64,000 nucleotides of DNA from Candidatus Cloacimonetes bacterium HGW-Cloacimonetes-2 (GTDB lineage Bacteria > Cloacimonadota > Cloacimonadia > Cloacimonadales > Cloacimonadaceae). The notes beneath the pieces are model-generated. The model saw only the letters and a program-made list of their open reading frames with translations, made no database searches and had not been told where the DNA came from. The stretch spans positions 1 to 64,000 of the forward strand of contig PHBP01000011.1 in assembly GCA_002842035.1 (NCBI GenBank). Direction: 5' to 3'. Of the stretch, positions 1-55,681 are shown piece by piece (the stretch's first letter is position 1; the number at the start of each line of letters is the position of its first letter). The position numbers and the translations under genes were made by a program.

Positions 1-290
1 CTCCCTTTATTGACACGTTCAATCTGTGTAGCGATACCATCTAAACAACCGGCAATCTTAGCATCGATATACCGGAGTCTTAATCGCCCCTATACTCGAT
101 TTATAACAGGCCATTGACCATACTTTTACTAAATCTCATCCTAAGTCATATTCTTGATTTTGCCTGCATCCTGTCAAGAATTATTAAGCAGTATAAATGC
201 TACCATAACTCATAAGGCACTATCATCCTGATCCTATGGCGGGTAAGGGGGGAACAGGTACTTACCCTCCTCGCTATTACCAAATCCTTG

Positions 291-485
291 TCTCACTCGA
301 AGCTCAGATGGGTGCAGCCCCTGAGCATCCCCTGTGAATCCCCTGTGGGACAGCAGAGTCACAGCTGCTAACCAGCAGTTGTACAGGTGCTTGCTAAGAG
401 AAAGGCTAATGCGCTTCTATTGAATGGATGCTTGTATCCTGCTTCTATCCTGCTTCTATCCTGCTTCAACAGGCATCATAGAGCT
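291..485. repeat. 11-bp-periodic palindromic intergenic repeat, copy A
   Basis: Two blocks. The first has the 11-mers GCATCCCCTGT (325-335) and GAATCCCCTGT (336-346), then GGGACAGCAGA. The second has three 11-mers of the form ATCCTGCTTCT (436-446, 447-457, 458-468, the last ending CA), preceded by TGGATGCTTGT and followed by ACAGGCATCAT, so the flanks are nearly inverted. The same blocks recur in the same order at 34077-34273, so this is a dispersed repeat. No coding capacity is seen. Confidence 0.85.
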
Positions 486-9755: not shown

Positions 9756-9784
9756 CACTTTATCTCACCCTTGATCATCCGGAT

Positions 9785-9861
9785 ATCAAGCCGATATCAA
9801 GAGCAAATCAAGTCGAACCCGGTTCGACTTGAATTGCTCTTGAATTGCTGGTGATCTGCTT
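9785..9861. repeat. 11-bp-periodic palindromic repeat, copy B
   Basis: Seven consecutive 11-bp units: ATCAAGCCGAT, ATCAAGAGCAA, ATCAAGTCGAA, CCCGGTTCGAC, TTGAATTGCTC, TTGAATTGCTG, GTGATCTGCTT. The centre is a perfect palindrome, with 11-base arms CAAGTCGAACC (9809-9819) and GGTTCGACTTG (9821-9831) around one C. The right-hand units are inverted versions of the left-hand ones. It lies between convergent genes and shares its units with copy E at 29672-29748. Confidence 0.9.
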
Positions 9862-9982
9862 TAGACCATAGGGATTCAATCGGGTCACACCCAGGAACAG
9901 GTATCACAAAGACACTATGTATAGAAATGATAGATCGATCCTGTAGATAAAGTTTAATTGATTGATAAGAATGGTGTTGAGC

Positions 9983-15607: not shown

Positions 15608-15767
15608 TTCTTAATTCACGGGTAAAGGGACTGCATTTCCCAATACGCTTTAAAGCCTTATCTATAGCGCTATTTCCCCTACCCGCTCCTTAAGAATGGC
15701 CGGGAGATTCCCGGGAGATTCCCGGGTGTTCCCCGGGTGATTCCCAGGTCGCGACCTAGGGATCGCC
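15608..15767. repeat. 11-bp-periodic palindromic repeat, copy C
   Basis: The tandem core consists of GGGAGATTCCC (15702-15712 and 15713-15723), GGGTGTTCCCC (15724-15734), GGGTGATTCCC (15735-15745), then AGGTCGCGACC and TAGGGATCGCC. Most units are themselves near-palindromes. The left flank (about 15608-15696) is an imperfect inverted repeat with arms ATTCTTAA...CGGGTA and TACCCG...TTAAGAAT. It lies between the end of the outer-membrane protein gene and the DUF2089 promoter. No ORF is seen. Confidence 0.85.
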
Positions 15768-15861
15768 TGCCCAATGCCTGACTTTGACCTGCGAGTTCTA
15801 TAGGGAGGCTAAAGTCTTGTAGAGATGATAGTAGAGGTTAGTTTTCCAGGAGATTAACAAC

Positions 15862-25814: not shown

Positions 25815-25893
25815 ACTCACAATCATTCTTCCCTGCTTGAATGCTTGGGTGATCCCCTGGTGATCCCCTGGTGATCCTCTTGTGAGTACCAAG
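25815..25893. repeat. 11-bp-periodic palindromic repeat, copy D
   Basis: The core units are GAATGCTTGGG (25839-25849), TGATCCCCTGG (25850-25860 and 25861-25871), TGATCCTCTTG (25872-25882) and TGAGTACCAAG (25883-25893). Outer arms ACTCACAA (25815-25822) and TTGTGAGT (25880-25887) are exact inverted copies, and GCTTGG/CCAAG pair within them. It lies between convergent genes, about 20 bases after the ferredoxin stop and 95 bases after the phosphatase stop. Confidence 0.88.
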
Positions 25894-25988
25894 GAATCGC
25901 CAATGTAGTGTGAAGGATTCACGGCAGTATTCAAAAGGAAGGCAGAATGGATGAAGGCGGTCTTAGCCAGGATACTCAATATATCCCG

Positions 25989-29520: not shown

Positions 29521-29659
29521 ATGAAGAACCGCTTACATCATAACTTGCTGATGCTTTTCTGCCAAGTGCTTTGTATGTACTAATTGATTGAGATATTGTA
29601 GATAAAGACCGATTGATAAAGGGATTCTTGCAGGCTGCACTCTCCCTTCTTACTGCATA

Positions 29660-29762
29660 GACTATCGGATATCAAAAGCAATTCAAGAGCAAATCAAGTG
29701 GAACGTCATTCGACTTGATTTCCTCTTGATTTGCTCTTGATTTGCTTTTGTCTATAGGGAAG
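29660..29762. repeat. 11-bp-periodic palindromic repeat, copy E
   Basis: Seven units in exact register: TCAAAAGCAAT (29672-29682), TCAAGAGCAAA, TCAAGTGGAAC, GTCATTCGACT, TGATTTCCTCT, TGATTTGCTCT, TGATTTGCTTT (ending 29748). Left and right halves are inverted copies. Outer flanks CTTACTGCATAGAC and GTCTATAGGGAAGCAGTAAG are also inverted with an interruption. It starts about 60 bases after the pyrG stop. Its units match copy B (9785-9861). The remainder of the gap 28960-29809 holds the sorting-domain relic and no gene. Confidence 0.9.
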
Positions 29763-29809
29763 CAGTAAGGATAAGCTGACCCACGATCACTTGTTAGATG
29801 TCCGTAGTC

Positions 29810-33916: not shown

Positions 33917-34076
33917 TGAGACCTCCAGTTTTCTTTTTGTTATTTTCCCCAACTTTAAAGAAGAGCCTTTTTTAGTCAACTGCAATTTAGCCCTATTTTT
34001 TCTTGGCTCAGGTATCCACTCGGACGCTGATCAATCCTTAAAGCTTGCCCTGCAAGCCTTAGCACCAGGCAGTCTT

Positions 34077-34273
34077 GTCTCTCTCAAAGCAGCCACCTGT
34101 GCAGCGCCAGCGCAGCAGCTGAGAATCCCCTGTCTCACAGCAGAATCACAGGGGATTCACAGGGGCTGTACAGGTGGCTGCTTCGAGAGAGGCTCATATC
34201 CCCCTCCTTCGATGGATGCTTGTATCCTGCTTCTATCCTGCTTGAATCCTGCTTGAACAGGCATCATCGAGAT
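34077..34273. repeat. 11-bp-periodic palindromic repeat, copy F
   Basis: This is the largest copy. Outer arms of about 24 bases (34077-34100 and 34170-34193) are inverted with two mismatches. Inside are GAATCCCCTGT (34123-34133) and, in 11-bp register, ACAGGGGATTC (34148), ACAGGGGCTGT (34159) and ACAGGTGGCTG (34170). A second block follows: TGGATGCTTGT (34213), ATCCTGCTTCT, ATCCTGCTTGA twice (to 34256), ACAGGCATCAT (34257-34267). Copy A at 291-485 has the same blocks. It lies downstream of meaB; the rest of 33917-34393 shows no gene. Confidence 0.9.
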
Positions 34274-34393
34274 TGTTTCCCAATAACTTAGACACGTCGA
34301 TTGGATAGGGAAGCTGGTGACAGGGACATATTTTGGATGGCTAGAAAGCTTGCTGGGATTGGGATTATGAATCTGCTGGGGAGAGTGTAAGTC

Positions 34394-41464: not shown

Positions 41465-41621
41465 CCTCCCAAAGAAATATCAATAATAATCTCCATAGAT
41501 TCTATCTACCATCCGGCAAGATTCTGTCAACAAGTTCGTCCTAAGCCCAATGAAATCATCAGATAGTTTTGGAATAGACCTGTCGATATTTAGGGACTTA
41601 TCAATTAGAAACCCCGTTTCT

Positions 41622-41741
41622 TACCACTATCTCCCCTAAAGGAATCTCTAGTGACTCTTTAATGACTCTCTAATCGGATTAAAGTATCATTAAAGAATTA
41701 CTAATGCATCATTATAGATTCTTTGCAGGGAGAGAGTGGGG
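41622..41741. repeat. 11-bp-periodic palindromic repeat, copy G
   Basis: Seven units in register: AATCTCTAGTG (41643), ACTCTTTAATG (41654), ACTCTCTAATC (41665), GGATTAAAGTA (41676), TCATTAAAGAA (41687), TTACTAATGCA (41698), TCATTATAGAT (41709-41719). The left units are ACTCTNTAATG and the right units resemble its inverse. Outer arms (ACTATCTCCC...AAGGAATCT and AGATTCTTT...GGGAGAGAGT) pair as an imperfect inverted repeat. It lies 85-205 bases downstream of the FG-GAP gene. The rest of 41465-41826 shows no gene. Confidence 0.87.
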
Positions 41742-41826
41742 AATTACATTGCTCTTGAGATTTTCAGTGTATTCGGTGGCCGATATTCAGAAATAGTCGT
41801 ATGAACTCAGTTTTGGGGGGATTTCC

Positions 41827-53433: not shown

Positions 53434-55681
53434 CTTTCTTTTGTTTACGTGGGGCTTCGTCGCCGTAGTAGTAGTAATAATAGTAGTAATAATAGTAGTA
53501 GTTCTGCTTGCTGTAGTACTTGTGAACGAAGATACCATTCACTATGATACCGTCAATCTTGGCATCGATATTTTCCATAAGTTCTTTGGTGCGCTTGATG
53601 ATACCTTTCTCAGTTTGGCCACAGCGAACCACCACGAAGGTCATATCGACTTTCTTGGTGAGAATCAGAGCGTCGGTAACAGCGATGATAGGAGGTGTAT
53701 CAAAGAGGATAAAATCATATCTCTCTTTGAGCTCTGCAATCAACATATCGGTACGGGCAGAAGAGATCAATTCTGATGGGTTGGGAGGTACAAATCCGCT
53801 GGTTATCACATCAAGATTTACTATACCAGATGATTTGACCACCTGTTCGATCTTGACATCAGCATCGATGAGATAATCACTGAGGCCGTTCTCTTTCTCA
53901 ATGCCAAATTTATTATGCACCATAGGACGTCTCATATCCATATCGATCAGGACAACCTTGCTGTTCATCTGAGAGAATGTAATGGCAAGATTTACTATTG
54001 AGGTTGATTTACCCTCTTTGGGACCGGACGAGGTTACCAAAAGCGTTGTGCTTCCTTCGGGCTTCTTTGCCAGGATATTGGTTCGCAGGGTACGATAGCT
54101 TTCTGCAATGGGAGATTTGGGAGCATAATGCGAGATCAATTGCATCAAAACAAAGTGCATTGATTTCATCAGTCGTTCTTTATTCTCGCCTTCTGCATTC
54201 TCGATCAGTTCATTGAATTCTTCGATACGAGCTTCAGATTCCTGAATCACAGGGATAGTACCGACTATCGGAAGCTTGACGAAAGTTTCCATGTCGTCCA
54301 AAGTGCGAAGCTTGTTATCAAGAGAGTGGATCAGGAAAGCAGCACCAATACCTAGACCAAGGCCCAGGATGATGCCTACAAGGATATTCATAGACACTCT
54401 CGGTTTGATTGGCACACGTGGCAGATCAGCGTATTCAATGATGCGGATATTGCCGACCTTGGCTTGTTCGGCAATCTTGGCATCTTCGTATTTCTCCATC
54501 ATCATACCGTGGATCTTCTCGTCAAGAAGCAGATTACGGCGCAATCTGGCAAGTTCCAGCTCGGTATTGGGAAGTGTGATCATTCTCTGAGCATACATCT
54601 CTTTGGTCTCTTCGAGACCGCTTACACTGGAGCGAGCCATTTCCAGCTCGATTCTTGCCTGTACAATACGGTTCAGGAGATCGCTGCGAGTAGCAACCGG
54701 ATCGCTTTGCATCTGGATGGCAACCATCTTGCGAACTTCCAGATCAAGATTTGCCTTTGATCTGTCTAACTCAGCATTAAGAAGAGCAATTTGTGGATGA
54801 TCCAGCGGGTATTCGTTTTTTGTGACAAGATTGGTGATCAAAGCCTGGGTGTCTATCACCTGCCTGCGAAGCTCATTTACGTAAGGAGCGTTTAGAATAT
54901 TCTCAACATTGACTATCAGTGAATCCTGCTCCGAGAGTTGTCTTTGCAGCATTTCAACCGTCTTGGCTTTCACCGCCTGGTCGGTAAGTGCTTGCTCGTA
55001 CTGCGCCTCAACTTCAGCAGATTGTTCGATCAGCTTCTGCGTTTCTGCAGAGAGCTCAACCAGTTGATTGGCATTTTTAAACTCGCGCAAGTCGTTCTCT
55101 GAGCTTTGCAATCTGCGAGATATAGCATCGAGCTGATCTTCCAAAAACTCGCGGACAGTGGTGTATTCGAGCCTGGCATACAGTGTATTCTCTTGCTGAA
55201 TAGCTTCAGCTACTGCATTGACAGCGGCCTGGGCTTCACTTTGGCTGGTCGATTCATAGGAAATCGTCAGAATGTCTGTCTCGCGTTTTGATTCTACTTT
55301 CATCCTGGCCTTGATGAATGCTCCGGGACTGGCGCTTTGCGAAATCGGGAACGACTCCCAATCCCTGTGCTTCTTCATAATCTCAGCAGCCCTATTGCCC
55401 AGGGGCAAGCTCTTCATCATTTCGATTTGATTATTCAGTGCATTAGTTCCGACCCCGGGAGTCGCAAAGAGCATTAGGTCTGAGGTATTCTTTTGATTCT
55501 CTATTAGCACTCTGGATGAAGTAGAATATACTTTGGGCTGACGGGCAGTATAGATCACTGTGGCAGCCAATACAAGAGTGAATATCAAGACTACAAGATA
55601 GCGGTATTGGACAATAATTCTTAAATAATCAGAGAGTTTTATCTCTTCCTGAACTACTGGATTGATGTGTTGATTCTCCAT
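53393..55681 (-). CDS. Wzc-like polysaccharide tyrosine autokinase with polytyrosine tail
   Basis: It would regulate capsule or exopolysaccharide assembly. The 762 residues comprise a Wzz/GumC domain with two membrane segments (about 31-50 and 435-455) around a large coiled periplasmic domain. A cytoplasmic BY-kinase domain follows: Walker A SGPKEGKSTS (about 555-564), Walker A' VVLIDMDMRRP (about 580-590), Walker B FILFDTPPI (about 667-675). The C-terminal tyrosine cluster is extreme: YYSKQN, then twelve Tyr in a row, then a basic tail. Such clusters are autophosphorylation sites. The Wza-like gene directly precedes it. Confidence 0.94.
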   Translation of the reverse strand: MENQHINPVVQEEIKLSDYLRIIVQYRYLVVLIFTLVLAATVIYTARQPKVYSTSSRVLIENQKNTSDLMLFATPGVGTNALNNQIEMMKSLPLGNRAAEIMKKHRDWESFPISQSASPGAFIKARMKVESKRETDILTISYESTSQSEAQAAVNAVAEAIQQENTLYARLEYTTVREFLEDQLDAISRRLQSSENDLREFKNANQLVELSAETQKLIEQSAEVEAQYEQALTDQAVKAKTVEMLQRQLSEQDSLIVNVENILNAPYVNELRRQVIDTQALITNLVTKNEYPLDHPQIALLNAELDRSKANLDLEVRKMVAIQMQSDPVATRSDLLNRIVQARIELEMARSSVSGLEETKEMYAQRMITLPNTELELARLRRNLLLDEKIHGMMMEKYEDAKIAEQAKVGNIRIIEYADLPRVPIKPRVSMNILVGIILGLGLGIGAAFLIHSLDNKLRTLDDMETFVKLPIVGTIPVIQESEARIEEFNELIENAEGENKERLMKSMHFVLMQLISHYAPKSPIAESYRTLRTNILAKKPEGSTTLLVTSSGPKEGKSTSIVNLAITFSQMNSKVVLIDMDMRRPMVHNKFGIEKENGLSDYLIDADVKIEQVVKSSGIVNLDVITSGFVPPNPSELISSARTDMLIAELKERYDFILFDTPPIIAVTDALILTKKVDMTFVVVRCGQTEKGIIKRTKELMENIDAKIDGIIVNGIFVHKYYSKQNYYYYYYYYYYYYGDEAPRKQKKDVRRFLRKNKSVS

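What the first reader, a model, noticed from the sequence alone, without database searches (positions are those of the whole stretch)
25815..25893. All seven arrays may share a hidden 11-mer consensus starting with TGA
Shifting the register of each array so that units begin with TGA gives TGAATCCCCTG and TGAATCCTGCT (291/34077 sites), TGAATTGCTCT (9785), TGATTCCCAGG (15702), TGATCCCCTGG (25850), TGATTTGCTCT (29716) and TGACTCTTTAA (41652). A loose pattern TGA-N-T/C-C/T then pyrimidine-rich emerges. This suggests one ancient element whose units homogenise within a site and drift between sites, rather than seven unrelated repeats.
Basis: partly seen in the sequence, partly recalled or inferred. 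Interest (0 to 1): 0.72.

Follow-up and report, generated by a model that had tools for sequence, protein, structure and literature searches.

The report
Evenly spaced 11-base repeat palindromes
The seven small repeat arrays belong to a class of non-coding, palindrome-like DNA elements built from 11-base units that sit between genes and keep several thousand bases away from one another even when their sequences are unrelated, which suggests they mark out the bacterial chromosome rather than being random leftover repeats.

Summary
Observation confirmed; interpretation only partly. The window (a Cloacimonadota genome) has seven period-11 sites. The reported array lies in a family A element, a ~123-bp imperfect palindrome with about 77 genomic copies. 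Six sites belong to recurring families: A (25825, 15689), D+B composites (290-540, 34070-34330), C (9757, 29643); E (41620) has no other copy in the 464 kb held. The TGA core is weak within the window and absent across the phylum. Units are not more alike within a site than between sites, so site-local homogenisation is not supported.

What is shared is the 11-bp period, intergenic location, usually a palindromic build, and spacing. A+B+C give 221 sites; of 207 neighbour gaps, three are ~100-bp composites and none lies between 0.13 and 3.6 kb (50 expected below 3 kb). In a complete relative, 94 sites of three unrelated families never lie closer than 9.2 kb (26 expected below 8 kb). A third genome agrees (minimum 6.4 kb). 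The rule acts across unrelated families.

Best mechanism, inferred: interchangeable chromosomal landmarks bound once per helical turn, perhaps supercoiling-domain boundaries. No binding protein is known and no experiment was possible.

The parts
25825..25947 (+). family A element holding the reported array (units TGATCCCCTGG x2, TGATCCTCTTG from 25850)
   Evidence: R1 match 106.3 bits (a member of the model's own alignment); period-11 array 25840-25888
15689..15813 (+). divergent family A element (units AGATTCCCGGG, TGATTCCCAGG)
   Evidence: R1 match 54.3 bits, not in the model's alignment; array 15693-15749
290..410 (+). family D element, first half of a D+B composite
   Evidence: array 311-351; weak fold, z -1.1; similar stretches before B in L018 and L019
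412..537 (+). family B element (units TGCTTSTATCC)
   Evidence: R2 match 92.3 bits (a member of the model's own alignment); array 425-473
9757..9886 (+). family C element, hairpin whose two arms both carry 11-bp units (ATCAAGAGCAA / CTTGAATTGCT)
   Evidence: R3 match 121.7 bits (a member of the model's own alignment); DNA fold z -6.0
29643..29772 (+). family C element, hairpin with 11-bp units in both arms
   Evidence: R3 match 126.3 bits (a member of the model's own alignment); DNA fold z -10.0
34070..34190 (+). family D element, long hairpin, first half of the second D+B composite
   Evidence: DNA fold z -7.5; array 34132-34176
34201..34324 (+). family B element
   Evidence: R2 match 80.7 bits (a member of the model's own alignment); array 34215-34260
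41620..41745 (+). element E, hairpin with period-11 units TGACTCTTTAA; no second copy found in the 464 kb held
   Evidence: DNA fold z -5.5; arrays 41645-41674 and 41678-41718; blastn against the held 464 kb

Best explanation
The arrays are parts of small (about 120-135 bp) non-coding chromosomal elements. Several sequence-unrelated families of them serve as interchangeable landmarks, placed between genes and kept at a minimum spacing of several kilobases. SHOWN: 11-bp units, palindromic build in most families, intergenic location, multi-copy families, family-independent spacing, turnover of families between species. INFERRED: each element is a DNA site on which a protein or protein multimer binds one 11-bp unit per helical turn, using the two arms symmetrically. 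Such a complex would constrain or wrap DNA and act as a topological boundary or gyrase/nucleoid-protein site, roughly one per 7 kb (window species) or 14 kb (complete relative), close to the ~10 kb topological domains of enteric bacteria. Because only geometry and spacing would matter to that role, families can replace one another as long as spacing is kept.
For: Spacing: G000 A+B+C, 221 sites, 207 within-contig gaps; 3 of about 100 bp (B and C side by side), 0 from 0.13 to 3.6 kb, 27 below 6 kb against 88 expected, mode 6-7 kb. Without the models, the lag scan on 464 kb gives 46 sites, minimum gap 3.85 kb, 0 below 3 kb against 7-8 expected for random intergenic placement. G011: 94 sites of families P, Q and R, minimum 9.2 kb around the circle, 0 below 8 kb against 26.5 expected; nearest P-Q pair also 9.2 kb, so the rule crosses families; intergenic null 0 of 5000 on the 20 sites in 460 kb. 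G009: 36 gaps, minimum 6.4 kb. Location: 42 of 42 classified sites intergenic in G000, with 13 of 17 convergent gaps of at least 150 bp occupied against 29 of 86 others, p 0.002; G011 20 of 20 intergenic. Palindromy: longest perfect inverted repeat at least 10 bp at 19 of 46 sites against 1 of 61 other intergenic regions. Period 11 holds across unrelated units in G000, G002, G006, G009 and G011. An 11-bp period is commonly read as the pitch of negatively supercoiled DNA (PMC4132750, passages), and topological domains are of order 10 kb (PMC10642903, passages).
Against: No binding protein or topoisomerase link was tested. Convergent-gene enrichment is clear in G000 but not in G011 (6 of 24 convergent, 7 of 26 divergent, 7 of 73 tandem). 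The minimum distance differs between genomes. Spacing is hard-core and liquid-like rather than periodic. PMC7537859 (start of abstract only) disputes that the 10-11 bp genomic period reflects supercoiling. B elements and some A and D elements fold weakly, and paired columns of A do not covary beyond shuffles. Relatives G005, G007, G026 and G028 show no period-11 array at the strict threshold in 79-120 kb each, and G031 one in 76 kb, so the role is not universal even in the order. Orthologous slots were seldom conserved.
Confidence: 0.4

Rival explanations
1. They are miniature non-autonomous mobile elements, and the spacing comes from transposition target immunity: a complex bound to any existing element blocks insertion nearby.
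For: Dispersed multi-copy families, imperfect terminal inverted repeats in A and B, rapid turnover between species, regional clustering of families in G000 (113 same-family neighbours of 207 against 70 expected).
Against: Immunity would have to act between families with unrelated sequence. No target-site duplication signal in 24 A copies. The only Y1/RAYT-type gene found lies with a different repeat and no period-11 array within its 3.2 kb locus. No relative of A in phage or plasmid records, and no exact A pattern in viral contigs. Other transposase families were not searched.
Confidence: 0.2
2. They act as RNA: bidirectional 3'-end hairpins, terminators or RNase III sites for flanking transcripts.
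For: Palindromes read alike on both strands; enrichment between convergent genes in G000; strong folds for C, E and one D.
Against: 9 of 42 sites in G000 and 7 of 20 in G011 lie between divergent genes; no consistent T-run after the A element; no Rfam match beyond tRNAs; RNA action gives no reason for kilobase exclusion between unrelated families.
Confidence: 0.1
3. They are DNA-uptake or species-recognition signals, which are also evenly spaced in naturally transformable bacteria.
For: Even spacing of uptake sequences is reported (PMC1939737, passages).
Against: Several unrelated families in one genome, about 120 bp long, all classified sites intergenic, and only one per 7-14 kb; uptake signals are a single short motif with many copies inside genes (partly recalled, partly PMC1939737).
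Confidence: 0.07
4. They are sites of replication or repair (secondary initiation, fork restart or recombination hot spots) that need regular distribution.
For: Regular spacing; direct 11-bp repeats resemble iteron arrays in form (recalled); the P asymmetry runs in long same-sign blocks in G011 (minus at all nonzero sites from 905 to 1383 kb, plus at nearly all from 1562 to 2246 kb).
Against: No replication protein link; family A orientation shows no consistent rule against tandem genes (about 6 same, 4 opposite, read by hand).
Confidence: 0.1
5. The spacing is an artefact of gene density or of the search (nearby copies merged or missed).
For: Sites need intergenic DNA, which is limited; site lists come from models and patterns with incomplete recall.
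Against: Random placement in real intergenic regions does not give it; the searches list hits 1-50 bp apart, so nothing is merged; three search methods agree.
Confidence: 0.05

Closest known systems
REP / BIME / REPIN elements (RAYT-associated)
   Same: Short, dispersed, extragenic, palindromic, hundreds of copies; REPs have been proposed to act in supercoiling (PMC3733652, abstract and passages)
   Different: Units of 11 bp in tandem, about 120 bp long, several unrelated families per genome, minimum spacing across families; the RAYT-like gene of this genome lies with another repeat
DNA uptake sequences (USS/DUS)
   Same: Many copies with even spacing (PMC1939737, passages)
   Different: Uptake sequences are one short motif; here several unrelated long palindromes, only between genes
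MITEs and other miniature inverted-repeat elements
   Same: Non-coding, terminal inverted repeats, multi-copy
   Different: No target-site duplication found; cross-family exclusion
Iteron arrays of replication origins (recalled)
   Same: Direct repeats in helical phase
   Different: Hundreds of sites, palindromic arms, no Rep gene shown
CRISPR arrays (recalled)
   Same: Repeats with regular period
   Different: Period 11, no spacers; no link to cas genes tested

Membership tests
REP/REPIN | 20-40 bp stem-loop tagged GTAG or CGTC | tested here: not met
   A consensus is 123 bp with inner stem GATYCCCTTGT-GGCG-ACAAGGGGATC and no such tag seen at its foot, by reading the alignment
REP/REPIN | RAYT gene flanked by the same repeat | tested here: not met
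   One Y1_Tnp gene (E 8.9e-12); its 3.2-kb locus holds another repeat and no period-11 array
MITE / non-autonomous transposon | terminal inverted repeats | tested here: inconclusive
   Outer stem pairs at about 84% of cells in A, but no covariation above shuffles
MITE / non-autonomous transposon | target-site duplication | tested here: not met
   k=5 to 9 direct repeats at the ends about as frequent as in mismatched copies, n=24
Structured RNA | match to a curated family | tested here: not met
   Only 3 tRNAs reach the gathering score in the window
Structured RNA | compensatory base changes | tested here: not met
   4 pairs with double changes against 4.2 in shuffles, family A only
DNA uptake sequence | one short motif greatly over-represented genome-wide | tested here: not met
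   Three families with 77, 86 and 58 sites in G000; three others in G011
Topological domain boundary / gyrase site | binding of gyrase or a nucleoid protein | not testable with these tools
   needs ChIP or cleavage mapping
Topological domain boundary / gyrase site | spacing of the order of 10 kb | tested here: met
   median gap 9.1 kb (G000), 17.6 kb (G011, three families only)

The most novel reading that the evidence does not exclude
Some Cloacimonadota chromosomes are divided by a system of interchangeable landmarks: several unrelated palindromic repeat families, all built on an 11-bp helical-turn unit, that obey one spacing rule (no two closer than about 4-9 kb, by genome). An unidentified protein would recognise geometry rather than one sequence, making this a genome-encoded ruler for chromosome domains.
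Probability: 0.3. Interest if true: 0.93.

Novelty: categorically new. Interest (0 to 1): 0.8.

Why it matters
How bacterial chromosomes are divided into domains, and whether the sequence sets the boundaries, is open. Here the sequence itself shows some hundred to two hundred well-separated sites per genome. Several unrelated families obey the same rule, so ordinary explanations based on one repeat's own sequence (homologous recombination, one transposase) do not suffice. It makes a direct test possible: map proteins and supercoiling at known coordinates in a Cloacimonadota enrichment. Dispersed palindromes as such are an old kind; the family-independent spacing and the shared 11-bp unit length are what I could not place in any known kind.

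Tried and rejected
Site-local homogenisation of units: rejected for A and B (the B figures were out of register and are replaced). A phylum-wide TGA core: no support (60 shuffles only). The built-in control of the pattern search (pattern read backwards) was useless because the A unit is mirror-symmetric. RAYT/REPIN origin: rejected. Known RNA family: none. Covariation of the A stem: none above shuffles. Target-site duplications: none. Mobility on viruses, phages or plasmids: no match to A (only A was tried). Family-specific chromosome regions as a general rule: true in G000 (113 against 70) but not in G011 (32 against 36). Strict periodicity: not shown; the long regular runs (18 gaps of mean 7.2 kb on C1; 11 gaps of mean 14.8 kb in G011) also occur in hard-core simulations. 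Other repeats as a spacing control: too few (2 to 10 sites in 464 kb), so uninformative. Slot conservation: of three comparisons with same-genus relatives, one G001 slot held a different family, one G000 site had no element in G002, and one G002 site had none in G000; four places compared with G009 showed no array at the equivalent position (alignments against the array list, by eye). Literature searches found no description of such elements in Cloacimonadota; only open-licence papers are held. One search printed its results and then stopped on a file-writing error.

Full report
What was checked. The window is contig C7:1-64000 of an unnamed 2.507-Mb genome. All seven arrays exist. An unbiased lag scan over the window plus 20 stretches of 20 kb (464 kb) finds 44 arrays at period 11, 17 at the harmonic 22, and at most 4 at any other period from 4 to 30.

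What the arrays are. They are parts of larger elements. Family A (the reported site, 25825-25947) has a consensus of about 123 bp: outer stem TCCC..TTGAATCC / GGTTTCAA..GGGA, then three units AGATCCCCTAG-TGATCCCCTAG-TGATYCCCTTG, a loop GGCG, and a single complementary copy ACAAGGGGATC. The left arm therefore carries two units more than the right; the number of units varies from two to four. A covariance model finds about 77 sites in the genome (150 matches because many sites match on both strands). The window's 15689-15813 is a divergent copy. Family B has 86 sites, family C 58. D lies just in front of B in at least four places (window twice, L018, L019), forming composites. E at 41620 has no other copy in the 464 kb held.

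Within-site unit identity does not exceed between-site identity at the same unit position (A 0.894 against 0.910; B 0.797 against 0.867). Each unit position keeps its own sequence across sites, so whole elements are copied. The TGA core exceeds shuffles for the seven units as listed, only marginally for one unit per family (1 of 60), and not for 13 units of the phylum (25 of 60 on the fixed strand, 5 of 60 strand-free).

Relatives. Model R1 matches 4 of 40 genomes including the own one: G009 (another genus, 63 matches), G010 (2) and G018 (1). The two same-genus genomes have none. Yet G002, G006, G009 and G011 have their own period-11 arrays with other units, often in near-perfect hairpins, for example about four units on each arm in L229:12470-12574 and in L189:109-201. 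G001 has one array at the strict threshold in 128 kb, G005 (100 kb), G007 (79 kb), G026 (120 kb) and G028 (80 kb) none, G031 one (76 kb); other phyla 0 in 1.03 Mb. Sequence turns over quickly; period and architecture stay.

Spacing. A alone: 64 within-contig gaps, minimum 4.0 kb, none below 4 kb against 15.5 expected. A, B and C together: 221 sites, 207 gaps; three gaps of about 100 bp are side-by-side B and C copies; otherwise the minimum is 3.6 kb; 3 against 50 expected below 3 kb, 27 against 88 below 6 kb; mode 6-7 kb. The lag scan, which uses no model, gives the same: 46 sites, 41 gaps, minimum 3.85 kb; random placement in intergenic regions gives 7-8 gaps below 3 kb. In the complete genome G011 (its size, from memory, is that of Candidatus Cloacamonas acidaminovorans Evry), three unrelated families P (42), Q (39) and R (13) give 94 sites; the smallest of 94 circular gaps is 9.2 kb; none below 8 kb against 26.5 expected; nearest P-Q pair 9.2 kb. 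Twenty of these sites in 460 kb were tested against random intergenic placement: 0 of 5000 draws reach the observed minimum. Weaker period-11 stretches that belong to none of P, Q and R appear at looser threshold in the same 460 kb (for example at 58.6 and 145.4 kb), so families are missing from this count; adding the one at 58.6 kb would lower the minimum to about 7.4 kb. In G009, 96 A-like sites at E up to 0.1 give 36 within-contig gaps, minimum 6.4 kb. Pair correlations are those of a hard-core liquid, not of a lattice.

Context. All 42 classified sites in G000 lie outside genes called by a codon-hexamer method; 42 of 103 intergenic regions of at least 150 bp are occupied: convergent 13 of 17, divergent 9 of 25, tandem 20 of 61 (p 0.002 for convergent against the rest). 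Four of the 46 sites could not be classified because a flanking gene was missing at a segment end. In G011 20 of 20 are intergenic, without convergent enrichment but with enrichment at strand switches (13 of 50 against 7 of 73, p 0.024). The G000 strand-switch test alone gives p 0.066. Gene calls are my own and approximate.

Interpretation. Because unrelated families avoid each other as strongly as copies of one family do, explanations that act through shared sequence are insufficient. Selection on a chromosome-level role that needs separation, or an insertion process that senses any member of the class, remains. I prefer the first: DNA sites on which protein binds once per helical turn, acting in chromosome topology or compaction. 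The 11-bp period fits the pitch of negatively supercoiled DNA as commonly interpreted (PMC4132750, passages); a dissenting paper (PMC7537859) was seen only as the start of an abstract. Topological domains of order 10 kb are described for enteric bacteria (PMC10642903, passages). Even spacing was once read as a sign of a role in replication, repair or compaction for uptake sequences (Karlin, as cited in PMC1939737, passages), a reading that paper itself disputes. This mechanism is inference; no protein is shown.

Limits. Models B and C were built from 10 and 5 sequences, and model A from 24; their members match by construction (window members included, except 15689). Model B carries no structure. 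Nulls for contigs of unknown length use the last site plus a margin. Fold strength is high for C, one D and E and low for B, A and the other D.

Noticed in passing
L029:1432-2118 (G000:C2:456445): Single Y1/RAYT-like transposase gene lying with a different palindromic repeat (GAGCGACAGGATGTCGCTC, GTCCGTCATCCTGACGGAC); a related repeat often follows family A elements downstream.
   Followed up: partly
window 34201-34324 and L019:12569-12707 against L136:1930-2330: Two genes adjacent in same-genus genome G001 are apart in this genome, and both broken ends carry family B elements; G001 has its own period-11 element at the junction.
   Followed up: partly
G011:C1 (L150:1596-1633): Two DnaA-box-like TTATCCACA repeats exactly 11 bp apart near coordinate 1, perhaps the origin.
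   Followed up: no
G011:C1:905000-2246820: Asymmetry of family P (which arm has more units) keeps one sign over long blocks: minus at all nonzero sites from 905 to 1383 kb, plus at nearly all from 1562 to 2246 kb.
   Followed up: no
G011:C1:1562000-1726000: Twelve consecutive sites alternate between families (P R P R Q P Q P Q P Q P) at 14.8 +/- 1.8 kb.
   Followed up: partly
L024:8684-8868, L025:8199-8383, L026:6946-7130: Beyond the A element several copies share TTAACAAGGAGTAAA-like sequence and further repeated modules (TTTTGACTTATAATTCTGCC...), so long intergenic stretches are mosaics of repeats.
   Followed up: partly
window 25825-25947 (family A unit TGATCCCCTAG): The tandem unit is mirror-symmetric (reads the same backwards), so reversed-pattern controls fail.
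   Followed up: no
window 53465-53502: TAGTAGTAATAA simple repeat inside overlapping predicted reading frames.
   Followed up: no
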